DNA of 10,581 nt from contig CAITSH010000119.1 of NCBI GenBank assembly GCA_903895005.1, forward strand, positions 1 through 10,581, read 5' to 3'. A program made the translations under genes and the position numbers. Positions 139 to 10,581 of this stretch are shown piece after piece (position 1 is the first letter of the stretch; every line of letters starts with the position of its first letter). Source of the DNA: an uncultured Pseudomonadota bacterium. Its GTDB lineage: Bacteria; Pseudomonadota; Gammaproteobacteria; Burkholderiales; SG8-39. The notes below the pieces were generated by a model that made no database searches, was not told the origin of the DNA, and saw only the letters and a list, made by a program, of their open reading frames with translations.

Positions 139-768
139 TCAGATCTCGGGCCCAAGCAGTGCCAAGCGCAGAATTCTTGAGGCATCGGCGAAGATTACAT
201 CGCGCGGCACATCCGTTTCGGAATGTAGTAATTCCTCGGTTACATAGCCGAGCTCAACGGTCATGCGCACACGCCGCCACACTTGCTCGCGGCCTAGATG
301 CGGCACCAGCGGCGCAAAAGCATCCGTCAGCTTGTCTGTGACGTAACGGTGCGATTTAATCCGGATGTGCTCGAGCTTGGGGGTGGCGTGGAGCGCACGT
401 TCTATCCAGACACCGCCAGGTTCCTCGTCGGTGATCCGGGCGGTCTCGCGCATCAGATGCTCGATACCGTTGGCGAAACCTTCAAGGCTACCGCCTGCGT
501 TGTTCGCGATCCATTCAGTCAGCACCAAATTTTGTCGATCCATCAGGCGCGTCCCCAGCGCTTCAAGCACGGCGTATTTATCCGCGAAGTAGTGATAAAG
601 CGTGGGGGGCGTAACGCCCGCACGCTCGCAGATCATGTTGGTCGAAATCCTCTCGATCCCGACTTCCGCCAGCAGTTCGCCGGCCACATCAAGGAGCATT
701 CCACGCGTCGGCTTGTTCGGCCGTTTCGTCTGCGCTGTGGGCGCCGTTCTCAGTCTTTTCACAGCCAC
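139..768 (-). CDS. TetR/AcrR-family transcriptional regulator
   Basis: A 209-residue one-component regulator, the usual TetR-family length. The N-terminal DNA-binding domain spans about residues 22-70: a helix around LLDVAGELLAEVGIERIS, then the helix-turn-helix with ICERAGVTPPTLYHYFADK (residues 46-64), the family signature. Residues 75-209 are the variable, mostly helical ligand-binding and dimerisation part, which gives no clue to the ligand. The first 20 residues are basic (KRLR, TKRPNK), a common extra DNA-contacting arm. The start is GTG at 768; a GAGG Shine-Dalgarno (774-777 on the plus strand) lies 5 bases upstream, and no in-frame ATG occurs before the upstream stop. The gene is divergent from the eight-gene operon that begins at 983, the classic arrangement for a local repressor that binds the shared intergenic region, where a strong inverted repeat is present (914-933). 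Family call is certain; the target is inferred from position. Confidence 0.93.
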   Translation of the reverse strand: MAVKRLRTAPTAQTKRPNKPTRGMLLDVAGELLAEVGIERISTNMICERAGVTPPTLYHYFADKYAVLEALGTRLMDRQNLVLTEWIANNAGGSLEGFANGIEHLMRETARITDEEPGGVWIERALHATPKLEHIRIKSHRYVTDKLTDAFAPLVPHLGREQVWRRVRMTVELGYVTEELLHSETDVPRDVIFADASRILRLALLGPEI

Positions 769-907: not shown

Positions 908-933
908 TTGACAATTATAGCGATGACTATAAT
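908..933 (+). promoter_or_regulatory. Candidate operon promoter with consensus -35 and -10 hexamers
   Basis: TTGACA (908-913) and TATAAT (928-933) are both perfect sigma-70-type hexamers, upstream of the TonB receptor gene and on its strand. The spacer is 14 bases, shorter than the usual 16-18. Either this promoter is weak or activator-dependent despite perfect boxes, or the real -10 lies a few bases downstream in the AT-rich repeat. A start near 940 would give a 5' leader of about 40 bases. The hexamers are seen; promoter activity is inferred. Confidence 0.55.
914..933. promoter_or_regulatory. Candidate TetR operator (perfect 7+7 inverted repeat)
   Basis: ATTATAG (914-920) and CTATAAT (927-933) are exact reverse complements around a 6-base spacer. 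The repeat fills the gap between the -35 hexamer and the end of the -10 hexamer, so a bound dimer would block RNA polymerase. Its 20-bp span and dyad symmetry suit a TetR-family dimer, and the only regulator gene nearby is the divergent TetR. Half-site-like CTATA/TATAG sequences recur just downstream (936-960), which may give extra binding sites. Binding itself is inferred. Confidence 0.6.
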
Positions 934-935
934 AC

Positions 936-959
936 AGCTATAGCTATAGCTATAACTAT
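936..959. repeat. Tandem AGCTAT hexamers between promoter and start codon
   Basis: Three exact AGCTAT copies (936-953) are followed by one with a single change, AACTAT (954-959). Because AGCTATAGCT is its own reverse complement, the run also forms overlapping palindromes and repeats the CTATA half-site of the neighbouring inverted repeat in both orientations. It falls in the predicted 5' leader or at the start of transcription of the operon. It may be a cluster of low-affinity operator half-sites or a slippage-prone microsatellite whose copy number affects expression. Confidence 0.7.
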
Positions 960-982
960 ATAACGATCAAGGGAGCGGCGTA

Positions 983-3400
983 ATGACGGTGAAGAAGGCA
1001 TTCTGGCTGGCAGGCTTTTCGATCTTCGCGTCGTCTCTTGCGATGTCGAGTATGGCTTTTGCGCAGGAGCAGACACCCGCACCAGAAACGGACAAGCCGC
1101 CGACTGCGACCATCGACGAGATTGTTGTATCCGCGCAAAAGCGCGAGCAAAGTCTCCAAAACGTGCCGATCAGCATCAACGCTTTCACTGGCAAATCGAT
1201 CGATGCATTAGGCGCGCAGAGCGCAGGAGACCTGGACACTTTCACACCGGGTCTGTCGATCAATGACACTTCGGTTACGCAGCCCAGCTTTTCCATCCGG
1301 GGTGTCCAGACCGACGATTTCGGGATCGGGACCGAGCCTGCCGTGGGCATTTTCATCGACGGCGTTTATTCGGGACGTTCAGGTGGCTCGCTGATCTTTT
1401 TCAACGATATTGAACGTGTTGAAGTGCTCAAAGGGCCGCAGGGCACGTTGTTTGGGCGTAACACATCGGCCGGGGCCCTTTCGATTATCACCAGGAAGCC
1501 AAGCGACAGGCTTGAGGCCTCGGCAACTGTTCGATTTGGCAATTACAACAAGCGCAGAGTTGATGTGATGGGCAATGTGCCTATCGCTGACGGGCTGTTC
1601 CTGCGGGTCAACGGGGTTGATAACAGTCGCCGGGGCTATCTGACCGACGCGGTCACTGGCGCTAATTATCAAAATGAAAAAAATTGGTCCGGGCGTGCCG
1701 CATTGCGTTTCGAGCCGTCTGATCAGACTGATTTCACGCTCAGCTTCGACCATGACGACACCGACCAGGGCGGGCCGACTGCTGTTGGCATCAGTCCGTT
1801 TGCGCTAAGCCAGGATCCCTTCGGGCCATTTGCCAACGATACAACCGGATCGCGCGAGTCGCGCATCCTGAACGCGGGCACGCTTACCGCCAATCATGAT
1901 TTTGGGCCGGTGACGCTGACCAGCCTGACCTCATTCAAGAAGTTTGAGACACACAACCGCCAGGATGAGGACGGCACAAACCTGCGTGCACGTTATCTCG
2001 ATTCCGAAAACATCGAGCAGAACCGTGGATTCTATCAGGAATTGCGGCTGGCGCACTCGGGCGATCGTTTGAACTGGGTGGCGGGCATCAGTTATTTCGA
2101 GGAGCGCGGACAGCAGACCCTCGCCGTTACTGGATTTACCGATTCGATCGACACGACCCTAAACACAGTTGCAGGCTTTCCGATCTTCACGATCCTAGAC
2201 AGCGTCGGCCTTCCTGTGTTCGACCTTTCGTGGCGCGAAGACATGATCAATTTCAATCACAACAAATCCTATGCCGCATTTAGCGATGTGACCTGGGCGG
2301 CGACGGACAAGCTCAACCTGACCGTGGGTTTGCGCTACACTAAAGACAGAAAACAGTTTTCCTGGTTCAATGAACGTCACATTTCGCCCGGCCTCAGTTT
2401 GGTAACCGCACCCGGTGCGCTGTATAATGCCATCATCGGCAATACCGTTTTCCCGGATGCTGCTATAATTGACGTCAACACGTTCTTCGATGCCGTCGTC
2501 GGCACCGACATCGTTTTTGATAGTGGCGCGCTCGAGGGAGTTGAGTTCTCCCGGAGCGAAAGCTTTTCGGATGTGAGCCCACGCTTCGTGATCGATTACA
2601 AACCAAGCGAGCATGTGATGGTCTTCGCCTCGGCCTCGCGCGGGTACAAGGCGGGCGGGTTCAACAGCGTTGAGATCAACTCCTTCTTCCGCCCTGAATC
2701 GGTGTGGAATTTTGAGGGCGGGGTTAAATCCGAGTTGTTCGACCGGCGATTGCGCCTCAACATCTCAGGCTATTACTTTAAGTACAAGGATCGCCAATCG
2801 ATCAGCCTTGAAGGTGTTTCAGGCTCAGGCATTCCGCAATACGTGACACTTTCGGGCGATTCCGAGGCAAAGGGTATCGATTTCGAGGCGCAATTTGCGG
2901 CTACCCCCAGCCTGACTTTTAGTACGTCTGCAGGTTATATTGATTCAACCTGGGTCAAGCGAACCGAACGCGGCATCGACATTTCTGGTCAGCCGACCGG
3001 CGAGCCGAAGCTTCGCCTGATCCTTGGCGCGCACTATGATCATGAGTTTGCCGGAGACGGCTCGCTCTTCGCTGATTCCAGCTATAGCTATACCTCGCCC
3101 ACCCGGATCAACGACGCCGTGCGTGACAGCGACAACAGCCTTGAAAACAATCCGACCTTCGGTGACCTGGTTGATTTTTCAAAGCTGGAAAGGCTTCGGT
3201 CGAGGCGCACAATCGTAAACGCTAGGATTGGCTGGCGCTCGCCGGGCGATCATTTCTCTGTCTCGTTATTTGCCGAAAACCTGTTCGATGTCCGCACACC
3301 GCGCACACTCAACACTGTCACTGCTGACGTGTTTGGAACACCCTATGTCCGGATTGATGAGCCTCGCTTCTGGGGCGTCGAACTGCGTTCGAAGTTCTGA
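983..3400 (+). CDS. TonB-dependent outer-membrane receptor
   Basis: An 805-residue beta-barrel receptor for TonB/ExbBD-driven uptake of a scarce or bulky substrate across the outer membrane. A Sec signal peptide ends at AFA|QEQ (after residue 27). A TonB box, IDEIVVSAQK, lies at residues 44-53, followed by the plug domain (about 57-170) with the conserved VEVLKGPQGTLFGRNTSAGAL segment around residues 148-168. The remainder is the 22-strand barrel, with the late motifs ASRGYKAGGFN and FAENLFDVRTPR and a C-terminal phenylalanine (ELRSKF) for Bam-dependent insertion. There is no N-terminal STN signalling domain, so sigma/anti-sigma surface signalling is unlikely. A GGGAG Shine-Dalgarno (971-975) sits 7 bases before the ATG. 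This is the first gene of the operon; only 2 bases separate its stop from the next start. Receptors of this sphingomonad type are often misannotated as iron receptors. Here the downstream sugar-oxidation genes argue for a carbohydrate or glycoside-like substrate, which is inference. Confidence 0.95.
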   Translation: MTVKKAFWLAGFSIFASSLAMSSMAFAQEQTPAPETDKPPTATIDEIVVSAQKREQSLQNVPISINAFTGKSIDALGAQSAGDLDTFTPGLSINDTSVTQPSFSIRGVQTDDFGIGTEPAVGIFIDGVYSGRSGGSLIFFNDIERVEVLKGPQGTLFGRNTSAGALSIITRKPSDRLEASATVRFGNYNKRRVDVMGNVPIADGLFLRVNGVDNSRRGYLTDAVTGANYQNEKNWSGRAALRFEPSDQTDFTLSFDHDDTDQGGPTAVGISPFALSQDPFGPFANDTTGSRESRILNAGTLTANHDFGPVTLTSLTSFKKFETHNRQDEDGTNLRARYLDSENIEQNRGFYQELRLAHSGDRLNWVAGISYFEERGQQTLAVTGFTDSIDTTLNTVAGFPIFTILDSVGLPVFDLSWREDMINFNHNKSYAAFSDVTWAATDKLNLTVGLRYTKDRKQFSWFNERHISPGLSLVTAPGALYNAIIGNTVFPDAAIIDVNTFFDAVVGTDIVFDSGALEGVEFSRSESFSDVSPRFVIDYKPSEHVMVFASASRGYKAGGFNSVEINSFFRPESVWNFEGGVKSELFDRRLRLNISGYYFKYKDRQSISLEGVSGSGIPQYVTLSGDSEAKGIDFEAQFAATPSLTFSTSAGYIDSTWVKRTERGIDISGQPTGEPKLRLILGAHYDHEFAGDGSLFADSSYSYTSPTRINDAVRDSDNSLENNPTFGDLVDFSKLERLRSRRTIVNARIGWRSPGDHFSVSLFAENLFDVRTPRTLNTVTADVFGTPYVRIDEPRFWGVELRSKF

Positions 3401-3402
3401 AG

Positions 3403-3747
3403 TTGCGTAGTCTGCTCCTTGCGGCGCTAATGACGCTAACCGCATGCCAGTCCGAACCTGCGCCCAGACCGCTGACGCCAGAACAGAGCGCCGCACTTAG
3501 GCCCCAGGACGCAAGGCTTGCCAGGCTCTATGAGCAATCGTGCAAGTCGTGCCACACGGCAAAAGATACTGGCGCGCCGATGACCGGGGACCCCACCCAG
3601 TGGAACCCGCGTTGGGAAAAGGGTGAAGCTGAATTGCTGAAGTCTGCGGTTGGCGGCTTACGCGGCATGCCGGCGGGCGGGCAGTGTTTCTCTTGCACGG
3701 CTAAGGACCATAAAGAGTTGATCCGATTCATGGCGGGAAGAGAATAA
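3403..3747 (+). CDS. Cytochrome c5-type lipoprotein, monohaem
   Basis: A 114-residue c-type cytochrome. A lipoprotein signal occupies residues 1-15, with lipobox LTAC (Cys15), so the mature protein is probably anchored in a membrane facing the periplasm. The haem site is CKSCH (Cys47, Cys50, His51). GMPAGGQCFSC (residues 88-98) supplies the likely axial methionine (Met89) and the extra CxxC typical of cytochrome c5. The start is TTG at 3403: the first in-frame ATG is codon 10 and would destroy the signal sequence. The Shine-Dalgarno is weak, which suggests translation coupled to the receptor gene two bases upstream. The stop overlaps the next gene by one base (TAATG). Its direct coupling to the flavoprotein gene that follows suggests that it accepts electrons from that enzyme (inference). 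Confidence 0.88.
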   Translation: MRSLLLAALMTLTACQSEPAPRPLTPEQSAALRPQDARLARLYEQSCKSCHTAKDTGAPMTGDPTQWNPRWEKGEAELLKSAVGGLRGMPAGGQCFSCTAKDHKELIRFMAGRE

Positions 3748-5162
3748 TGGCGAATCTGTCGCGGCGATCAATGCTGATCGGCGGGGGTGTTATGGGGGCG
3801 GGCCTGGCTTGCGCCGGCGGGCTTGCCGGGCGGCGGCTTTGGCTTGATCGGGAACCGGTTATGCCTGCCCTGCAGGACGCGCAAGGGCGCCTCATTTGGA
3901 GCAACTGGTCGGGAATTGCGCACGCCTATCCTGCTGAACGGGCCGCGCCCGCGAGCGAGGACGAACTCGTTCATATCCTCAAGACGGCACCCGGCCCGGT
4001 CCGCCCCGTGGGTTCGGGGCATTCATTCACGGCGCTTGTGCCGACTCAGGGCACTTTGCTCACGCTCGATAACATGGCTGGAATCGTTTCGCATGATCCG
4101 GCAAGCAATCGGGTGGTTGTGCGCGGCGGCACGCGCTTGGTTGATCTTGGTCCGGCACTGGCTGCGATCGGCCAGGAGATGATCAACCTCCCCGATATCG
4201 ACAAGCAATCGATCGCCGGTGCGATCGGCACCGGAACGCATGGCACGGGTCGCGGAATCCAGGCGATCCATGGCTCGGTTGTCGGGCTGCGTCTGGCGAC
4301 TCCGTCGGGAGAACTGATCGATTGTGATGCGACGGCGAATTCAGAAATCTTCAACGCGGCACGCGTTGGGTTGGGAGCGTTCGGCGTCGTGACGCAGGTA
4401 ACCTTGCAAAACCAACCGCTGTGCCGCGTGCTCAAGCGGGTCGAGGTCCGGCCCACCAGCGAAGTGTTCGATGATTGGTCCGCACTCAGGCAGCAACATC
4501 GCAACGTCGAATTCTATGTCCTGCCCTTTACAGGGCATTCGGTTACCATTTCCCATGATGTGACCGACCGTCCGATCAAGCCTCGTGGTCCCGACCGGGA
4601 CGTGGAAACGTTGATGGCGCTCAAGCAATTGCGCGACTTTTTTGAATTCATGCCTGCACTCCGCCGCCGCCTTGCCGCGCAAGAACTGGCGAATATCCCG
4701 CCTGAGGAGGTAGTTGACGAAGGCTGGAAGCTGCTCTCCAACGAACGTCCGGTGCGTTTCAATGAGATTGAATACCACCTGCCAATCGAAGCGCAAATTC
4801 CTGCGCTGCGAGAGATACTGGCTGCGATTGAGAGCCAACACGTTGACGTATTCTTCCCCATTGAAGCGCGCGTGATTGCCCCCGACGATGCCTGGCTTTC
4901 GCCCTTCTATGGCCGCGAATGTGGGTCGATCGCGGTCCACGCTTATTACAAGGAAGATCATGAATTCTTTTTCAGCCTAATTGAGCCGATTTTCCGGCGT
5001 CATGGCGGCCGCCCGCATTGGGGCAAGCTTCATTCCCTGAAGGCACGAGATCTGGCTGCGCTCTATCCGCGCTGGCGCGAGGCAGGTGACGTACGCCGGG
5101 CGCTCGATCCGCAAGGGCGGATGCTCAACGACTATCTGAAGGGAATCTTCCTCGATGGCTGA
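3747..5162 (+). CDS. Tat-exported FAD-linked oxidoreductase, D-arabinono-1,4-lactone oxidase family
   Basis: A 471-residue flavoprotein of the vanillyl-alcohol-oxidase fold, in the branch with L-gulonolactone oxidase, arabinonolactone oxidase, galactonolactone dehydrogenase and alditol oxidase. The N-terminus carries a twin-arginine signal (SRRSMLIGG at 5-13, then a hydrophobic, glycine-rich stretch to about 28), as expected for an enzyme folded with its cofactor before export. The FAD-binding PP-loop region contains PVGSGHSF (about 87-94); His92 lies where this family attaches FAD covalently. A second FAD motif, GTGTHGTG, lies at 161-168. The C-terminal domain ends with the family's RPHWGK motif (422-427), which shapes the active site. 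Substrates in the family are aldonolactones, alditols or sterols; the sequence does not decide which. The upstream cytochrome gene overlaps by one base, so the enzyme may pass electrons to cytochrome c rather than oxygen, as galactonolactone dehydrogenase does. The next gene starts 8 bases inside the 3' end of this one. Confidence 0.9.
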   Translation: MANLSRRSMLIGGGVMGAGLACAGGLAGRRLWLDREPVMPALQDAQGRLIWSNWSGIAHAYPAERAAPASEDELVHILKTAPGPVRPVGSGHSFTALVPTQGTLLTLDNMAGIVSHDPASNRVVVRGGTRLVDLGPALAAIGQEMINLPDIDKQSIAGAIGTGTHGTGRGIQAIHGSVVGLRLATPSGELIDCDATANSEIFNAARVGLGAFGVVTQVTLQNQPLCRVLKRVEVRPTSEVFDDWSALRQQHRNVEFYVLPFTGHSVTISHDVTDRPIKPRGPDRDVETLMALKQLRDFFEFMPALRRRLAAQELANIPPEEVVDEGWKLLSNERPVRFNEIEYHLPIEAQIPALREILAAIESQHVDVFFPIEARVIAPDDAWLSPFYGRECGSIAVHAYYKEDHEFFFSLIEPIFRRHGGRPHWGKLHSLKARDLAALYPRWREAGDVRRALDPQGRMLNDYLKGIFLDG

Positions 5163-6435
5163 AGCTGCAAAACCGCGCCATTGGACGCGCAGGTTGGCAA
5201 TTGCTGGCGGCGGGGCGACCGTGCTTGGCGCGGCCGCTGTGCTCGCGTCGCGCAAGGGCGATAAGGGCGGGGCTCATGACGCATACTTTTTGAAACTGTC
5301 TGAGGCGCTCCAGCAAGCCAGCATCGCTCATCCACTGTTGGTGATCGACCAGCGCCGCCTCGATCATAATATAACCGCAGTGCATGCGGCGCTTACCCCC
5401 AAAAAACTGCCCCTCCGGATAGTGGTGAAGTCGCTTCCCGCGCGCGGCATTATCGATCATATCGCGGCCGGTATGGGCACCAATCGATTCATGGTGTTCA
5501 ACGGTGAGATGCTCGCCGAAATGGCTGCGCTTCCCGGTGCCGACCTGCTGCTTGGTAAACCGCTTCCCGCGCTCCAGCTTGCACAGTTTCTCGATAGGGT
5601 CGGACCTGACGCCGCTCAGAAGGTGCAATGGCTGATCGACACGCCCGAGCGCCTCAAGCAGTATATGGAGGTCGCTGGCGCGCAGGATGCCAGCCTCAGG
5701 CTGAACTTCGAGATCGATGTTGGGCTCCATCGCGGCGGCTTCACTGAGGACCAGGCACTCGCCGCCGCCATTCAGACAGCTAAGCAGTCGGCCGCGATCA
5801 GCGTCTCAGGCTTGATGGGTTACGATCCGCACGTACCGAAAATGAGCGATCCGGACGCGGCCTATGCGCAATCGCAGCGGAAATACCGCGCGGCAATTGC
5901 GGTGCTACGCGACACGCTCGGCGTGGATCCCGCGACACTCACACTCAACGGTGCGGGCAGTCCGACTTATTCCCGTCACGCCCAGGGGACCGTCGCCAAT
6001 GAAGTCTCCGTCGGTTCGGCTTTCGTCAAGCCGGCCGATTTCGACCTGCCGGGGCTTGCCCGCCACGTGCCCGCCACTTTCATTGCAACCCCGGTGATCA
6101 AGGCGCTCGATCGCATGCACTTGCCCGGCAACGAATGGCTGTCAGGGCCGCTAAATTTCATGGACCCCAACACCAAGCGAGCCTTCTTTATCTATGGCGG
6201 GCATTGGATGGCGACCCCCGTGTCACCGCCGGGACTCGAGTTCAGCAGTTTGTTCGGCAGGTCGAGCAATCAGGAAATGTTGACGGGTTCCACCCATGTT
6301 GCACTCAAGCCCGACGACTATGTCTTCTTGCGCCCGAACCAGAGCGAGGCGGTCTTCCTCCAGTTCGGAGACATCGCGGTGTTCGACGGCGAGAAGATAT
6401 CCGGCCTCTGGCCGACTTTCCCGGTTTCGGCATAG
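5155..6435 (+). CDS. Exported fold-type III PLP enzyme, D-threonine aldolase / D-serine dehydratase-like
   Basis: A 426-residue protein with an alanine-racemase-type TIM barrel and a DSD1-like C-terminal domain. It starts with basic TRRLAIAGGG and a hydrophobic stretch (about 13-32), a Tat-like signal or membrane anchor, which is unusual for this family and implies a periplasmic location. LLVIDQRRLDHN (61-72) opens the barrel, and Lys92 in IVVKS is the likely PLP Schiff-base lysine. FEIDVGLHRGGF (185-196) and the G-A-GSPTY segment (266-272) match the family's substrate- and phosphate-binding regions. The C-terminal domain runs to the final GLWPTF. Where D-threonine aldolases and D-serine dehydratases have PNHxC or a His-x-Asp metal pair, this protein reads PNQSE (Gln396, Glu398), so the metal site is changed or lost. 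It may therefore be a racemase or something else rather than an aldolase or dehydratase. ATG 5155 overlaps the previous gene by 8 bases and has AAGGGA about 10 bases upstream. The substrate is unknown. Confidence 0.85.
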   Translation: MAEAAKPRHWTRRLAIAGGGATVLGAAAVLASRKGDKGGAHDAYFLKLSEALQQASIAHPLLVIDQRRLDHNITAVHAALTPKKLPLRIVVKSLPARGIIDHIAAGMGTNRFMVFNGEMLAEMAALPGADLLLGKPLPALQLAQFLDRVGPDAAQKVQWLIDTPERLKQYMEVAGAQDASLRLNFEIDVGLHRGGFTEDQALAAAIQTAKQSAAISVSGLMGYDPHVPKMSDPDAAYAQSQRKYRAAIAVLRDTLGVDPATLTLNGAGSPTYSRHAQGTVANEVSVGSAFVKPADFDLPGLARHVPATFIATPVIKALDRMHLPGNEWLSGPLNFMDPNTKRAFFIYGGHWMATPVSPPGLEFSSLFGRSSNQEMLTGSTHVALKPDDYVFLRPNQSEAVFLQFGDIAVFDGEKISGLWPTFPVSA

Positions 6436-6483
6436 CGGTGCACTGTAGAACTGAAGTTGCGTCATAATCGGAAGTTTTGTCTT

Positions 6484-6921
6484 ATGAACCCAAATTACTT
6501 GCTGCAGTATTCTGTCGATCAAAGAGGCCGAAAATTGAAGCTCGTGGCTGCGATGTTTGCCGCTTCGGTTTTGGTCGTTGCCCCTCGCGCTGCTGCCGAC
6601 CCCACTGTGGAATTAGTCACTCCGCAACCGAATGGCGAAGAGTTATTCGCCCAGCGGTGCAGCGCCTGTCATTCAACGGTAACCGCCAAGGCAAACCCGC
6701 TTGGGCCGAATCTGGTAGGTGTGTTTGGTCGCAAGGCTGCGGCAACGACATTTAGACATTCGCCCGCGCTCAGCAATTCAAAGCTGATTTGGACCCGGGC
6801 TAACCTTGATCGCTACCTAGCCGCGCCAGCGCGAGCGGTTCCGGGCACAAGAATGGTCATGGCACTGCTGGATGCCAAGCAACGGGCGGCCGTTGTCACT
6901 TTTCTCGAAGAAGCAAAATAG
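6484..6921 (+). CDS. Class I cytochrome c, periplasmic, monohaem
   Basis: A small soluble cytochrome c of the mitochondrial-like class I type. Numbered from ATG 6484 (145 residues): a hydrophobic signal segment at about 20-34 with probable cleavage after RAAA, haem site CSACH (Cys59, Cys62, His63), the GPNLVGVFGRKAA loop (74-86), SPALSNSKLIW (93-103) and PGTRM (120-124) with Met124 as sixth haem ligand. The start is uncertain. ATG 6484 has GGAAG 9 bases upstream. TTG 6535 has AGAGG about 8 bases upstream and gives a textbook signal peptide beginning MKLVAAMFAASVL (128 residues). A still earlier TTG (6457) looks least likely. The gap from the previous gene (48-99 bases) is the widest in the operon. 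It precedes the ThuA and GMC genes and is the natural electron acceptor for the GMC dehydrogenase. Confidence 0.88.
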   Translation: MNPNYLLQYSVDQRGRKLKLVAAMFAASVLVVAPRAAADPTVELVTPQPNGEELFAQRCSACHSTVTAKANPLGPNLVGVFGRKAAATTFRHSPALSNSKLIWTRANLDRYLAAPARAVPGTRMVMALLDAKQRAAVVTFLEEAK

Positions 6922-6947
6922 AAAATCTACGATTGGGAGCAATGCAT

Positions 6948-7874
6948 ATGTGGAAGCAGGTCAGGCGGGTAGCGCTATGGATCCTTGTGATCTTGCTTGC
7001 GATTATCGCTTTCGGTGTGGTTAGCAACTGGAGCTTGGTTCAGCGCGTTTTTCTCGGCGGGGTGAAGGTCTATGAAACCGCGCCGCCATCGGTGCCGAGG
7101 GATCTGAACCGGCCGGCCATCCTCGTCTTCTCCAAAACCAACGGCTTCCGCCATGAAGAAGCTATTCCCGCAGCAAATGCCCTTTTCGCCCAAATGGCAA
7201 AGGGCGAAGGCTGGGGGTATTTCCAGACCGAAAATGCTGCGACATTCACGCCGACCATTCTTGCGCAATTTGACGTGGTGGTGTTCAACAATGTCAGCGG
7301 CGATGTCTTCCTGCCTCAGCAGCGCGCGGCTCTCAAAAGCTATGTCGCAAATGGCGGCGGCTTTGTCGGTGTGCACGGCGCGGGCGGCGATCCGTCCTAT
7401 GACTGGCGCTGGTATGTCGAAACGCTGATCGGCGCGCAGTTCACGGATCACCCCATGAACCCGCAATTCCAGAGGGCGACAGTGCGGATCGAGGACAAGG
7501 CGCACCCTGCCACCCGCAGCCTTCCCGACACACTGGAGCGAATAGATGAATGGTATTCGTTCGAGAAATCCGCGCGCAAGCCGGGTGTGACGGTGCTCGC
7601 GACGCTCGATGAATCGACATATTCGCCCAAGAGTTTGTTTGGCGGGGATTTGGCAATGGGCCGGGATCATCCGATTGCATGGTGGCACTGCACAGGAAAA
7701 GGCCGCATCTTCTATTCGGCAATGGGCCACCAGGCCGCTGCCTATGCCGAGCCACATTATCGAACGATGCTGCAGGGCGCGATGCGCTGGGCACTGCGGC
7801 TAGAGGGAGAAGGGTGCAGCCCCAATCATGTAAATGCCGTCGTAAGTACGGCTGTGAAGGCTGAGAGGAGATGA
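6948..7874 (+). CDS. Membrane-anchored ThuA-domain protein
   Basis: A 308-residue protein. An N-terminal transmembrane helix preceded by a basic segment (about 8-25) should place the rest in the periplasm. Residues 55-285 form a ThuA-like domain (glutamine-amidotransferase-like fold): ILVFSKTNGFRH near the start, FVGVHGAGGD (139-148), the conserved DEWYSF (200-205), and MGRDHPIAWWHCTGKGR (237-253) followed by FYSAMGH. Rhizobial ThuA works with ThuB in trehalose and maltitol use through 3-keto sugars, so a role in handling a 3-keto glycoside made by the neighbouring GMC enzyme is plausible but unproven. The start ATG 6948 is chosen because GGGAG (6935-6939) lies 8 bases upstream; an ATG 6 bases earlier is too close to it, and TTG 6933 precedes it. 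The ATG that overlaps this gene's stop codon and the adjacent GAGGAG imply tight coupling to the next gene. Confidence 0.87.
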   Translation: MWKQVRRVALWILVILLAIIAFGVVSNWSLVQRVFLGGVKVYETAPPSVPRDLNRPAILVFSKTNGFRHEEAIPAANALFAQMAKGEGWGYFQTENAATFTPTILAQFDVVVFNNVSGDVFLPQQRAALKSYVANGGGFVGVHGAGGDPSYDWRWYVETLIGAQFTDHPMNPQFQRATVRIEDKAHPATRSLPDTLERIDEWYSFEKSARKPGVTVLATLDESTYSPKSLFGGDLAMGRDHPIAWWHCTGKGRIFYSAMGHQAAAYAEPHYRTMLQGAMRWALRLEGEGCSPNHVNAVVSTAVKAERR

Positions 7875-7876
7875 CC

Positions 7877-8500
7877 ATGCAATTCGACGCACGAGGCGAC
7901 ATGAACCGGCGGATGATGATGCAGCGTGCCTTGCTGCTGCTAGGTGCTGCGGCCGTGCCGCTGGATGCTGCGTTTGCTGCGCGGGCCAATGGCGGACCGT
8001 TTCTCAAGCCAACTCAATTCCAGCTGCTTAACGCGGTCGCCGATACCATCATGCCGAACACCGATACGCCTGGCGCAGTAGTTGCAGGTGTCCCTAAATG
8101 GCTGGACCGTATGCTTGGCAGCTGGGCTTCGGCAGAGACCAAGGCCCAGATAACAGGTGCGCTGGCCCGGATTGATGCGGCAGCCAAAGCCGGCAAATCG
8201 AAAAGCTTCGTCGCGCTATCGATCGCTGATCGCGCAGCGTTTCTGAGTCTGCATGATGCGACCGCGCTCAAGACTGTTCCGGCCCCGCCCAATGCACCCC
8301 AAGGCAATCTTCTCGCCCCCATCTATTGGGTTGCCGACAATGGCTATCTCAAGCTCAAAGACCTGGTGGTTGCGCTTTATTACAGCACCGAAATCGCGAT
8401 GACCCAGGAGCTGATCTACGAGCACGTGCCCGGAGAGTGGCAGCCTTCGATCAAAGCCACCGCACAGACGAGGCCTTGGGCCAGCGTTGACCTAATCTGA
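7877..8500 (+). CDS. Small (chaperone-like) subunit of a GMC dehydrogenase, gluconate 2-dehydrogenase subunit 3 family
   Basis: A 207-residue protein of the family that partners membrane-bound or periplasmic FAD dehydrogenases for gluconate, sorbitol, glucose and glucosides. An N-terminal twin-arginine signal (NRRMMMQR followed by ALLLLGAAAVPL and AAFAA, about residues 10-36) is present. The large catalytic subunit next door has no signal, so this subunit probably carries it through the Tat system by the known hitchhiker mechanism. The mature part opens with the family-typical QFQLLNAVADTIMPNTDTPGA segment. ATG 7877 is preferred: GAGGAG (7865-7870) lies 6 bases upstream, whereas ATG 7871 abuts it. 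ATG 7901, just before the arginine pair, is a further possibility. The gap to the previous gene is 2 bases, and the GMC gene follows after 13 bases. Confidence 0.88.
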   Translation: MQFDARGDMNRRMMMQRALLLLGAAAVPLDAAFAARANGGPFLKPTQFQLLNAVADTIMPNTDTPGAVVAGVPKWLDRMLGSWASAETKAQITGALARIDAAAKAGKSKSFVALSIADRAAFLSLHDATALKTVPAPPNAPQGNLLAPIYWVADNGYLKLKDLVVALYYSTEIAMTQELIYEHVPGEWQPSIKATAQTRPWASVDLI

Positions 8501-8513
8501 ACGGGATATTCGA

Positions 8514-10202
8514 ATGTATGATGCAATTGTAATCGGCTCGGGGATGTCGGGCGGGATTGCCGCCAAGGAATTGTGCGAGCGCGGGCTTAAGGTGCTGGTG
8601 CTTGAACGCGGCCGCAAGATTGAACACGGTGTGGACTATATGGACACGAAAATGCCGTGGGAGCTGCCGAATAACAATAATATCCCAGAGGAAGAGCTGG
8701 CCAAGGATTATGCGATCCAGCGCCAATGCTATGCGGTCAACGAAGCGACCAAGCAGTTCTGGGTCAAGGACAGCGAGCATCCCTATACCACACCGCCTGA
8801 AAAGCCATTCGCTTGGATCAGGGGCTACCATCTTGGTGGCCGCTCCATCATGTGGGGACGGCAAAGCTACCGCCTGTCTGACATGGATTTCGCCGCCAAT
8901 GCCAAAGATGGTCATGGTTGCGACTGGCCGATCCGCTATGATGACCTCGCGCCCTGGTATGACCATGTTGAAAAATTTGTCGGTGTCGCCGGGTCGAAAG
9001 AAGGCCTGCCGCAATTGCCAGATGGCGAATTCCTTCCGGAATTTGCGCTGAATGACGGTGAAAAACTGTTCAAGGCTGAAGTTGAGGCAAAATTCCCTGG
9101 GCGAAAGGTGATCTCGGGCCGGACTGCCAATCTGTCCGTGGCCCTACCGCATCATGAAGAACTGGGCCGCTCCACCTGCCAGAATCGTTCGATCTGCGAG
9201 CGTGGCTGCAGCTTTGGTGCGAACTATACCAGTCTGAGCGCGGCGCTCCCCGCGGCAGAGCGGACCGGAAACTTGACAATCATCACCGATGCGATTGTTC
9301 ACAGTCTGGTCCAAGATCCAAAGACCGGCAAGATCACGCAGGTTCGGGTGATCGATGCCAAAACCAAGCAGGGCAAGACCTTTGAGGCAAAAGTCTTTTT
9401 CCTCTGCGCCTCGACAATTGCGTCTGCACAGATCTTGTTGAATTCTAAGTCTGAAGCCAACCCGCGTGGCCTGGCCAACAAGTCGGACCAGGTCGGGCGC
9501 AATTTGATGGACCATATATACGATATGGTGACGGTGGGCGTGCTGCCGCAAGGACCGGACGACAGCTATTTCAAGGGCCGCCGGCCGACCGGCATCTACA
9601 TTCCGCGGTTCCGAAACGTAAGCGAAGAGGCGGACGGCTATGTTCGCGGCTTTGGCTACCAAGGCGCCGTAACGCGACTCGGCGAGGGCCCCCAGGCCCA
9701 TTTGCCGGGCTTAGGAGCCGAGATAAAAGAACGCGCGCGGAAGCTTGGGCCTTGGCTTATCTATGTCTCAGGTTTTGGCGAAATGTTGCCAAACCCTCAG
9801 AACCGCGTGACGCTCCACGAAACCAGCAAGGACAAATGGGGCTTGCCAATTCTCCATATTGATTGCGCCCAAGGGCCAAACGAGGCCCAAATGGGCAAGC
9901 AGATCATGGCCGATGGCAAGGCGATGGTCGAAGCAGCAGGCGGTTTTGTTATGATGCAGCTGGGTGAACCGGGCACGCCGGGATTGGGTATCCACGAAAT
10001 GGGCACGGCACGCATGGGCAAGGACCCGATGACTTCGGTCTTGAACAAATACAATCAGGCCCATGAAGCGCCGAACCTGTTCTGTACCGATGGTGCGGCG
10101 ATGTCCTCCAGCGGCTGCCAGAACCCCTCACTCACCTATATGGCGCTCACCGCGCGTGCCGCACATCACGCGGTAGAATTCCTGAAGGAAGGCAATCTCT
10201 AG
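8514..10202 (+). CDS. GMC-family FAD dehydrogenase, catalytic subunit (glucoside 3-dehydrogenase-like)
   Basis: A 562-residue glucose-methanol-choline oxidoreductase that oxidises an alcohol group, probably on a sugar, using FAD. The N-terminal dinucleotide fold is AIVIGSGMSGG (4-14) with acidic Glu31 closing the motif (VLERG). GYHLGGRSIMWGRQSYR (104-120) is the FAD-contacting GMC segment. Cysteines 222, 228 and 232 form C-x5-C-x3-C, the spacing used for the [3Fe-4S] cluster in direct-electron-transfer FAD glucose dehydrogenases. The catalytic pair is His494 in HEMGTARMG and Asn537 in GCQNPSLT. There is no signal peptide; export should depend on the small subunit upstream. ATG 8514 has a GGGA-type Shine-Dalgarno 7 bases before it. 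The ThuA neighbour and the overall type favour C3 oxidation of glucosides, but glucose 1-, gluconate 2- or polyol dehydrogenases are related. Electrons would go through the Fe-S cluster to the operon's cytochrome c. Confidence 0.9.
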   Translation: MYDAIVIGSGMSGGIAAKELCERGLKVLVLERGRKIEHGVDYMDTKMPWELPNNNNIPEEELAKDYAIQRQCYAVNEATKQFWVKDSEHPYTTPPEKPFAWIRGYHLGGRSIMWGRQSYRLSDMDFAANAKDGHGCDWPIRYDDLAPWYDHVEKFVGVAGSKEGLPQLPDGEFLPEFALNDGEKLFKAEVEAKFPGRKVISGRTANLSVALPHHEELGRSTCQNRSICERGCSFGANYTSLSAALPAAERTGNLTIITDAIVHSLVQDPKTGKITQVRVIDAKTKQGKTFEAKVFFLCASTIASAQILLNSKSEANPRGLANKSDQVGRNLMDHIYDMVTVGVLPQGPDDSYFKGRRPTGIYIPRFRNVSEEADGYVRGFGYQGAVTRLGEGPQAHLPGLGAEIKERARKLGPWLIYVSGFGEMLPNPQNRVTLHETSKDKWGLPILHIDCAQGPNEAQMGKQIMADGKAMVEAAGGFVMMQLGEPGTPGLGIHEMGTARMGKDPMTSVLNKYNQAHEAPNLFCTDGAAMSSSGCQNPSLTYMALTARAAHHAVEFLKEGNL

Positions 10203-10204
10203 TC

Positions 10205-10417
10205 AAACCGGAAATCTCGCCCGGCTACCTTGGGTTCGATATCGGCACCTCAGGCGTAAAGGCCGTGCTGGTCGAAGCGGACGGCACGATCTGCAACAAG
10301 CAAGTGGCTGCGTTAAACGTTTGGCTGCCGCACGCGCTGTGGTCCGAGCACGTTCTGAAGCATTGCGTATGGTGTGCACTGTCAAGAGACAGTTATTTGA
10401 GAGCCCCCTTGGGGTGA
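10205..10417 (+). pseudogene. N-terminal remnant of an FGGY-family sugar kinase (xylulokinase-like)
   Basis: The frame from 10226 reads YLGFDIGTSGVKAVLVEADG, the ATP-binding N-terminus of FGGY carbohydrate kinases. Family-like LPHALWSEH (matching the PHP-WSEQDP region of xylulokinases) ends near 10351. After that the resemblance stops abruptly and the frame closes at TGA 10415-10417. About 42 recognisable residues remain of a normal length near 500. No in-frame ATG, GTG or TTG was found between the kinase motif and well inside the GMC gene, so the start appears lost too. Its position immediately after the GMC stop suggests that it was the next gene of the operon before truncation. It is very unlikely to make a working kinase. 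Confidence 0.75.
10378..10393. repeat. Perfect inverted repeat near the kinase truncation point
   Basis: ACTGTC-AAGA-GACAGT has 6-bp perfect arms around a 4-base loop. It lies about 27 bases after the kinase homology ends and touches the stop codon of the minus-strand partial gene. It lacks a following T-run, so it is not a clear terminator. It may be the scar or end of a mobile element or a recombination site, but I recognise no insertion-sequence family. Confidence 0.45.
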
Positions 10418-10581
10418 TCGCGCCTCATCCTAAAGCCTCGAAAATCCAGATTGTTCAATTCAATCAGATCCTTTGAAGCCCAGACGGCGAATGAGGCAAA
10501 CCCCACCGAGTTTGGGACATTGAGTGCCAAAGGCCCAATGTTCCACCCATGTTCCGCTCTGGGTACAAAATAGCCATCAGG
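10393..10581 (-). CDS. Unidentified gene, 3' end only (runs off the window)
   Basis: An open minus-strand frame enters at the last base of the window and ends at TAA (10393-10395), giving 62 C-terminal residues. It begins PDGYFVPRAEHGWNIG, continues through GFASFAVWASKDLIELNN and ends FRGFRMRRDHPKGALK. It looks like real protein: mixed aromatic and charged residues, plausible strand and helix pattern, no low complexity. I cannot name the family. The ending, with a short helix followed by a G-F-x-M strand, faintly recalls some immunity proteins of polymorphic toxin systems, but that is only an impression. By eye the stretch has a lower GC content than the operon. It converges on the truncated kinase, so it probably belongs to a different DNA segment brought next to the operon. 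Confidence 0.5.
   Translation of the reverse strand, partial: PDGYFVPRAEHGWNIGPLALNVPNSVGFASFAVWASKDLIELNNLDFRGFRMRRDHPKGALK

What the first reader, a model, noticed from the sequence alone, without database searches (positions are those of the whole stretch)
983..10202. Eight-gene, wholly extracytoplasmic oxidation operon with two flavoenzymes and two cytochromes
Every product has an export signal, an anchor or an exported partner: receptor, lipoprotein cytochrome, Tat aldonolactone-oxidase-type enzyme, anchored PLP enzyme, soluble cytochrome, anchored ThuA protein, Tat small subunit, GMC subunit. Tight overlaps indicate one transcript. Combining an arabinonolactone-oxidase-type enzyme, a D-threonine-aldolase-like PLP enzyme, a ThuA domain and a [3Fe-4S] GMC dehydrogenase in one TonB-linked operon is not a pathway I recognise. 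A working hypothesis is periplasmic oxidation of a sugar or glycoside (C3 oxidation plus a second oxidation) feeding the respiratory chain.
Basis: partly seen in the sequence, partly recalled or inferred. Interest (0 to 1): 0.7.

Follow-up and report, generated by a model that had tools for sequence, protein, structure and literature searches.

The report
Sphingosine-oxidation operon joined to 3-keto-sugar genes
The first half of this gene cluster is a relative of the Pseudomonas sphingosine-detoxifying sphBCD genes, here with an outer-membrane receptor and its own regulator, and it is joined to sugar-oxidising genes whose relatives were seen elsewhere, which suggests, but does not prove, a pathway for sugar-bearing sphingolipids.

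Summary
The eight ORFs are real, at the stated places, tightly packed and export-marked or exported with a partner. Their relatives show not one conserved pathway but two known modules.

Module 1 (983-6435: TonB receptor, lipoprotein cytochrome, Tat flavoenzyme, PLP enzyme of D-threonine-aldolase fold), with a divergent TetR gene (139-768), is of the sphBCD type: in Pseudomonas aeruginosa the same cytochrome, flavoenzyme and PLP genes sit beside sphR, and sphBC are needed to remove sphingosine (PMC11893366). The flavoenzyme lies directly upstream of the PLP gene in 66 of 68 testable relatives. A palindrome, TATAG-N6-CTATA, lies between TetR gene and operon in 19 of 25 regions.

Module 2 (6457-10202: cytochrome, anchored ThuA, GMC complex) is of the LacABC / 3-keto-glycoside kind. 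Its three closest plasmid relatives keep ThuA with both GMC subunits, with no module 1 on those plasmids. None of 80 module-1 relatives shows module 2 in the flank held.

Most likely: periplasmic oxidation of a sphingoid base (C1 oxidation, then retro-aldol cleavage), with a glycoside-oxidation block recruited behind it. Whether the blocks share a glycosylated sphingoid substrate or only a promoter is open. Against the lipid reading: 2 of 41 relatives' genomes had a neutral ceramidase. New variant of a known kind.

The parts
139..768 (-). TetR-family regulator, divergent from the operon; probable repressor (inferred from family)
   Evidence: PF00440 E 5e-14; a member of the same TetR cluster in 33 of 80 loci of module 1 relatives
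916..960 (.). Probable TetR operators: TATAGCGATGACTATA (916-931) and two overlapping TATAG-N6-CTATA sites (939-960)
   Evidence: sequence; pattern within 2 mismatches in 19 of 25 TetR-to-next-gene regions, window included; 200 shuffled sets mean 0.08, max 1
983..3400 (+). TonB-dependent receptor
   Evidence: PF00593, PF07715; 72% and 64% relatives near the module in L021 and (opposite strand) L055; receptors only 26-28% identical upstream in seven other loci
3403..3747 (+). SphB-like lipoprotein mono-haem cytochrome c
   Evidence: PF13442; lipobox by eye, CKSCH
3747..5162 (+). SphC-like Tat-exported FAD enzyme (ALO / alditol-oxidase family)
   Evidence: PF04030, TIGR01679; 44% to the P. aeruginosa protein in SphC's position; E-x-R and WGK stretches shared with 2vfr
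5155..6435 (+). SphD-like PLP enzyme, D-threonine-aldolase fold, exported
   Evidence: PF01168; model pLDDT 88.4, best PDB match D-threonine aldolase 4v15; 43% to the P. aeruginosa protein in SphD's position
6457..6921 (+). Soluble exported cytochrome c, presumed electron acceptor of the GMC complex
   Evidence: PF00034, CSACH; no plasmid match at or above 60% identity (376 records below 60%)
6933..7874 (+). ThuA-domain protein with N-terminal membrane anchor, domain presumed periplasmic
   Evidence: PF06283; hydrophobic N-terminal stretch in all 14 aligned sequences, by eye
7871..8500 (+). Gluconate 2-dehydrogenase subunit 3-like Tat small subunit
   Evidence: PF13618
8514..10202 (+). GMC large subunit with a [3Fe-4S]-type cysteine motif
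   Evidence: fructose dehydrogenase and FAD-glucose dehydrogenase large subunits are the best PDB matches; motif
10205..10402 (+). Remnant of an FGGY sugar-kinase N-terminus
   Evidence: PF00370 E 6e-7; a 98.7% identical contig (L001) matches only up to 10421

Best explanation
The operon is a composite. Its first half is an sphBCD-type module with its own TonB receptor, under a divergent TetR regulator. The receptor brings a sphingoid-base-like amino alcohol into the periplasm; the Tat flavoenzyme (SphC-like) oxidises the C1 CH2OH next to the amino carbon; electrons pass to the lipoprotein cytochrome (SphB-like); the PLP enzyme (SphD-like, D-threonine-aldolase fold) cleaves the resulting beta-hydroxy-alpha-amino aldehyde or acid into glycine (or its aldehyde) and a long-chain aldehyde. 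A D-erythro sphingoid base oxidised at C1 has the D configuration, which fits a D-threonine-aldolase fold (chemical inference). Its second half is a LacABC-like GMC dehydrogenase complex with a cytochrome and an anchored ThuA protein, of the kind linked to C3 oxidation of glycosides, placed behind module 1. Shown by sequence: homology of the two modules, shared strand and spacing, recurrent operator. Inferred: substrate, direction, aldol cleavage, repression by TetR, co-expression of module 2.
For: P. aeruginosa keeps cytochrome c5 - ALO - PLP beside a transporter gene and sphR; the window proteins align with those in SphC's and SphD's positions at 44% and 43%, with K92 (presumed PLP lysine) and Q396-S397-E398 invariant. 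Literature: sphBCD is in the sphingosine-SphR regulon and the same C1-oxidation and aldol scheme was proposed there (PMC3900636, passages); without sphBCD sphingosine accumulates, and growth with sphinganine and phytosphingosine suffers too (PMC11893366, abstract, part of the methods, results to the distribution section, discussion). Order: ALO directly upstream of PLP in 66 of 68 loci with at least 2 kb upstream; a cytA relative upstream in 60 of the 68. Fold search: D-threonine aldolase first. On a Yoonia plasmid the PLP, ALO and cytochrome genes lie near AMP-binding, enoyl-CoA hydratase and 2,4-dienoyl-CoA reductase genes, as a long-chain product would call for. Module 2: ThuA, isomerase, G2dh3 and GMC together on ES2-1, THN1 and RL4 plasmids, RL4 with a second GMC set beside a 3-keto-disaccharide hydrolase.
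Against: Neutral ceramidase was found in 2 of 41 relatives' genomes, both Moraxellaceae, and in 0 of 4 plasmid records (none of its 14 control genomes rang either), so a sphingolipid diet is not evident in the alphaproteobacteria. SphD was dispensable in P. aeruginosa; sphBC deletion had no phenotype in P. fluorescens WCS365; the C. crescentus sphC deletion mattered only in a narrow range and its sphBC did not significantly complement. The authors leave open whether SphBC act on sphingosine directly. The PLP family appears to have Gln-x-Glu where D-threonine aldolase / D-serine dehydratase relatives bind a metal (motif reading by eye), so aldolase chemistry is unproven. Identity to the Pseudomonas proteins is only 43-44%, and their names rest on gene position.
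Confidence: 0.62

Rival explanations
1. The two modules are parts of one pathway for a glycosylated sphingoid base (for example a lyso-glycosphingolipid): the GMC complex oxidises the sugar at C3, ThuA helps cleave the 3-keto-glycoside, and the SphBCD-like enzymes oxidise and cleave the freed base, all in the periplasm. (A stronger form of the best explanation, not exclusive of it.)
For: Same strand, 21 nt (48 nt to the likelier start) between the modules; terminator-like sites not above chance; both halves export-marked with one cytochrome each; module 2 relatives sit with 3-keto-glycoside-type genes.
Against: The pairing was seen only in the window: 0 of 80 module-1 loci. Among the 120 listed relatives each, PLP and ThuA hits share no contig length; PLP and GMC hits share the window's own 10581 and 2044, the latter too short for both genes. 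No ceramidase or glycosyl hydrolase among the nine proteins scanned.
Confidence: 0.22
2. Module 2 is a recent arrival behind module 1 with no functional link; it oxidises ordinary glycosides and borrows the promoter. (Also compatible with the best explanation of module 1.)
For: The three plasmids with the closest module 2 relatives gave no PLP match; the plasmid search found four other records only. Truncated FGGY kinase at the 3' edge and loss of match after 10421. G001 carries module 2 from inside cytB onward at 98.7%, and no ALO or PLP match was found in it.
Against: G001 is a fragmented bin (650 contigs, 86% complete, 7% contamination) whose contig begins in cytB, so absence of module 1 there proves little; the tool warns that such an empty answer shows nothing. 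Tight spacing would be lucky for an insertion.
Confidence: 0.4
3. One reading: one pathway oxidising a sugar, aldonolactone or amino sugar, with the PLP enzyme acting on a sugar-derived beta-hydroxy amino acid such as glucosaminate.
For: The ALO enzyme is related to xylitol (alditol) oxidase, which acts on polyols (recalled); a sugar-derived amino acid could also be a D beta-hydroxy amino acid.
Against: Gene-for-gene match with sphBCD and its sphingosine phenotype; no sugar gene recurs beside module 1: the families of 20 or more members in the 80 loci were PLP, ALO, TetR, cytA and TonB receptor only.
Confidence: 0.12
4. The contig is a metagenomic mis-join of two genomes between PLP and cytB.
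For: No independent sequence spanning the junction was found; the listed PLP cluster counts one contig, the ThuA cluster four.
Against: No sharp step in base composition there (about 0.60 to 0.57 G+C); the junction is clean between two genes on one strand.
Confidence: 0.1

Closest known systems
sphBCD operon of Pseudomonas aeruginosa (PA5328-PA5326; PMC3900636, PMC11893366)
   Same: Cytochrome - Tat FAD oxidoreductase - PLP threonine-aldolase-like enzyme in the same order; Q-S-E motif kept in the PLP protein; periplasmic
   Different: Here a TonB receptor and a TetR regulator stand in place of the sphA channel and the AraC regulator sphR; no ceramidase match in 39 of 41 relatives' genomes; module 2 added; 43-44% identity
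LacABC lactose 3-dehydrogenase with putative 3-keto-lactose hydrolase of Caulobacter crescentus (PMC9007349, passages)
   Same: Membrane-bound periplasmic three-component dehydrogenase (that it is a GMC flavoprotein plus partners is recalled) near a 3-keto-glycoside-processing protein
   Different: Here a ThuA protein stands where the DUF1080 hydrolase is; no transporter, isomerase or reductase in the window; LacA itself was not compared here
ThuA - isomerase - G2dh3 - GMC clusters on Novosphingobium plasmids ES2-1, THN1, RL4
   Same: GMC 72-77% identical, ThuA 59-67% with the same kind of N-terminal anchor
   Different: No PLP match on those plasmids; an isomerase there (annotated in ES2-1, Pfam in RL4, by likeness in THN1), and in ES2-1 an MFS transporter (a like-sized ORF in THN1), absent here; no cytB relative found beside them
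Fructose dehydrogenase and FAD-glucose dehydrogenase complexes
   Same: GMC large subunit (best E 2e-46) with [3Fe-4S]-type cysteines; Tat small subunit and cytochrome subunit recalled
   Different: Distant sequence; one haem motif in cytB rather than the three recalled for their cytochrome subunit
D-threonine aldolase / D-serine dehydratase fold-type III PLP enzymes
   Same: Fold (TM 0.70 to 4v15)
   Different: Exported, 18% identity, metal-site motif apparently replaced by Gln-Ser-Glu

Membership tests
sphBCD-type operon | Gene order cytochrome - ALO-type FAD enzyme - PLP enzyme on one strand | tested here: met
   same order
sphBCD-type operon | Near full-length homology of SphC and SphD | tested here: met
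   44% and 43%; the P. aeruginosa proteins were taken as SphC/SphD from their place beside sphR, not by locus tag
sphBCD-type operon | Periplasmic export (Tat SphC, lipoprotein SphB) | tested here: met
   signal motifs read by eye from the sequences; no signal-peptide predictor was run
sphBCD-type operon | SphR-type AraC regulator and SphA channel alongside | tested here: not met
   TetR and TonB receptor instead; so it is a relative, not the P. aeruginosa regulon
sphBCD-type operon | Needed for sphingosine removal | not testable with these tools
   needs mutants or enzyme
sphBCD-type operon | Neutral ceramidase in the genome (as cerN in P. aeruginosa) | tested here: inconclusive
   2 of 41 relatives' genomes and 0 of 4 plasmid records; the window's own genome is not held
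LacABC-type GMC dehydrogenase complex | GMC large subunit + Gluconate_2-dh3 subunit + cytochrome c | tested here: met
   the composition of LacABC itself is recalled
3-keto-glycoside pathway | 3-keto-glycoside hydrolase (PF06439) or sugar isomerase in the cluster | tested here: not met
   neither among the nine window proteins; only ThuA, whose role is inferred
D-threonine aldolase | Fold | tested here: met
D-threonine aldolase | Metal ligands (His-x-Cys/Asp, recalled) near the C-terminus | tested here: inconclusive
   Q396-S397-E398 invariant in 29 aligned sequences and in P. aeruginosa, but the printed HMMER alignments stop before this stretch

The most novel reading that the evidence does not exclude
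A dedicated periplasmic pathway for glycosylated sphingoid bases: TonB capture, C3 oxidation and ThuA-assisted loss of the sugar, C1 oxidation of the freed base, and retro-aldol cleavage by a PLP enzyme with an altered metal site, all before anything crosses the inner membrane.
Probability: 0.2. Interest if true: 0.78.

Novelty: new variant of a known kind. Interest (0 to 1): 0.52.

Why it matters
The direct product of sphBC in Pseudomonas is unknown and SphD has no shown role (PMC11893366). The alphaproteobacterial version, with its own receptor, regulator and a recurrent operator, is a cleaner system in which to find the substrate and test the proposed C1-oxidation and aldol route. It also shows an aldolase-fold PLP enzyme exported beside a flavoenzyme in many Alphaproteobacteria, some of which make sphingolipids themselves (recalled for sphingomonads and Caulobacter), and raises the testable question whether glycosphingolipids are dismantled in the periplasm.

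Tried and rejected
One conserved eight-gene pathway: rejected by neighbourhoods. Regulon search with the operator in eight genomes: 15 places within one mismatch, 10 of them at this operon by coordinate; the reversed control pattern also gave 15, so the genome-wide count is not enriched; four of the five other places were looked at and none was accepted as a further target. Neutral ceramidase co-occurrence: negative for nearly all. Window's own genome: not held. Viral contigs: no relative. G001 as kin: rejected, since PLP relatives at E 1e-30 occur in 2 of 298 genomes of its family, and GMC and ThuA relatives at the strict cut-offs 1e-80 and 1e-50, with few candidates scored per genome, only in G001. 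Immediate downstream neighbours on the same strand (31 ORFs from the 80 loci) read by eye for a recurring partner: only TonB receptors stood out. Plasmid match for the window's 3' tail: none. Literature: searches (no paper; listings) showed no paper describing a TonB-linked alphaproteobacterial sphBCD or glycosphingolipid 3-keto route; in PMC7142613 (TonB transporters of sphingomonads) the words sphingosine, sphingolipid, racemase and lactone oxidase do not occur; in PMC13318209 (Novosphingobium glycosphingolipids) sphC, ceramidase and TonB do not occur. Subscription papers and preprints are not held.
Full report
Observation. The eight ORFs and their families are as described, with gaps of -8 to 21 nt by their coordinates. 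Promoter-like and terminator-like sites between 700 and 10581 are not above the shuffled expectation. A ninth gene matters: a divergent TetR regulator at 139-768.

Module 1 is sphBCD-like. A protein search with the PLP enzyme found 4262 relatives at E 0.001 or better among 7997 scored. In these, an ALO gene lies directly upstream in 66 of the 68 loci with at least 2 kb upstream (not in L062 and L065), and a relative of cytA was found upstream in 60 of the 68. Clustering of neighbouring ORFs gave five families with 20 or more members: PLP, ALO, TetR, cytA and TonB receptors; the next largest, of 16 and 13 members, were not identified. Plasmid records gave the name: on a P. aeruginosa plasmid record, among what look like chromosomal genes, cytochrome c5 - D-arabinono-1,4-lactone oxidase - DSD1-family PLP enzyme lie beside a transporter gene and sphR. 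[quoted passage not shown] PMC11893366 (abstract, part of the methods, results up to the distribution section, and discussion read) showed that sphB and sphC are needed for growth with sphingosine, sphinganine and phytosphingosine, that sphingosine accumulates without the operon, that sphD was dispensable under their conditions, and that direct action is unproven. The window's ALO and PLP proteins are 44% and 43% identical to those in the SphC and SphD positions.

Chemistry. The ALO enzyme's best PDB matches are an FAD-binding protein (8ot8) and 2vfr (listed as xylitol oxidase; recalled as alditol oxidase AldO), with E-x-R and WGK stretches shared in the printed alignments; that these are active-site residues is recalled. 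Oxidation of a terminal CH2OH is what the C1 step needs. The PLP enzyme models as a D-threonine-aldolase fold (pLDDT 88.4; best hit 4v15, TM 0.70). Its C-terminal motif P-x-Q-S-E is kept, with Q396, S397 and E398 invariant in 29 aligned sequences and in a seven-member set with P. aeruginosa, Ruegeria, Eleftheria, Yoonia, Sphingopyxis and Agitococcus. For D-threo-3-hydroxyaspartate dehydratase, of the same fold family, H351A and C353A mutants are in the PDB, the latter titled metal-free; that the window's Q and E stand at these places is my motif reading, not a tool alignment. On a Yoonia plasmid the ALO, cytochrome and PLP genes lie near AMP-binding, enoyl-CoA hydratase and 2,4-dienoyl-CoA reductase genes, as a fatty aldehyde product would call for. 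In Ruegeria pomeroyi the three genes follow a TetR gene directly.

Receptor and regulator. By the rule used, a TonB receptor lies within about 3 kb in 17 of 80 loci, nine upstream (one on the other strand) and eight downstream, and in 14 of 52 loci with full flanks; the rule missed at least L069, whose receptor ORF overlaps the PLP end. The window's receptor is 72% and 64% identical to those of L021 and L055, while seven loci nearer by PLP sequence have a receptor only 26-28% identical. The PLP tree groups the window with those seven and two others (99/97) apart from L021 and L055; the ALO tree does not resolve this. A receptor exchange is therefore suggested, not shown. Between TetR gene and operon, TATAGNNATNNCTATA occurs within two mismatches in 19 of 25 regions (window included), against a mean of 0.08 and a maximum of 1 region in 200 sets of dinucleotide shuffles; five of the 25 served to derive the pattern, and of the other 20 it is found in 14. 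Six of 25 lack it. In eight whole genomes 10 of 15 sites within one mismatch lie at this operon; the reversed control pattern also gave 15, so only the place, not the count, is telling.

Module 2 is a LacABC-like glycoside-oxidation set. The GMC subunit is related to fructose and glucose dehydrogenase large subunits and carries C-x5-C-x3-C. Its three closest plasmid relatives (72-77%) are on Novosphingobium ES2-1, THN1 and RL4, which also hold the three closest ThuA relatives (59-67%). In all three ThuA, a TIM-barrel isomerase (annotated in ES2-1, by Pfam in RL4, by likeness in THN1), G2dh3 and GMC lie together. RL4 has a second GMC set beside a PF06439 3-keto-disaccharide hydrolase. In Caulobacter, LacABC with a PF06439 protein is tied to lactose use through 3-keto-lactose (PMC9007349, passages read). 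Among the 120 listed relatives each, ThuA and GMC hits share three contig lengths (12432, 11524, 49651), consistent with linkage. That ThuA itself cleaves 3-keto-glycosides is inference.

The junction. No locus of the 80 shows a module 2 gene in the flank held, 69 of them with at least 4 kb and 58 with at least 8 kb downstream. A PLP search of the plasmids found four records, none of them the three with module 2 relatives. Listed PLP and ThuA relatives share no contig length; PLP and GMC share the window's own and 2044, too short for both. The nearest held genome, G001, carries window 6758-10421 at 98.7% and no longer matches afterwards; no ALO or PLP match was found in it, but it is a fragmented bin and its contig starts inside cytB. 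The window continues into a truncated FGGY kinase. So the eight-gene order is so far known only from this window; recent joining, a rare lineage-specific pathway and a mis-assembly all remain possible. Base composition shows no sharp step.

Counter-evidence to the lipid reading. Neutral ceramidase (PF04734) was found in 2 of 41 genomes, both Moraxellaceae, and in none of 4 plasmid records; free sphingoid bases would not need it, and the window's own genome could not be searched. The C. crescentus and P. fluorescens WCS365 results were weak or null, so function in Alphaproteobacteria is extrapolated.

Verdict. Known modules in an unusual union. Module identity is well supported; the shared substrate is a hypothesis. 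Novelty: new variant of a known kind.

Noticed in passing
window 10205-10421: Truncated FGGY sugar-kinase start right after the GMC gene; a near-identical contig (L001) stops matching after 10421, so a rearrangement edge may lie here.
   Followed up: partly
window 908-933: TTGACA (908-913) and TATAAT (928-933) overlap the first operator, but only 14 nt apart, shorter than the promoter scan allows.
   Followed up: no
L082 (Novosphingobium ES2-1 plasmid) 11231-31698: ThuA/GMC set in a large catabolic cluster with several TIM-barrel genes and a gene annotated DUF6379, which I recall as the small subunit of C-glycoside deglycosidases; the cut piece of it gave no Pfam hit.
   Followed up: partly
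L089 (Novosphingobium RL4 plasmid) 11899-21712: Two GMC dehydrogenase sets side by side, one with ThuA and one with a 3-keto-disaccharide hydrolase, as if ThuA filled the hydrolase place.
   Followed up: partly
window 6340-6348 (PLP residues 396-398): Gln-Ser-Glu invariant in the SphD-like family where D-threonine aldolase relatives are expected to hold a metal.
   Followed up: partly
L088 (Yoonia plasmid) 1576-14671: PLP gene separated from ALO and cytochrome by AMP-binding, SGNH hydrolase and DUF819 genes, with beta-oxidation genes nearby; DUF819 also follows the PLP gene in Ruegeria pomeroyi (L085).
   Followed up: partly
window 983-3400: The TonB receptor may have been exchanged between lineages that keep the same cytochrome-ALO-PLP genes.
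   Followed up: partly
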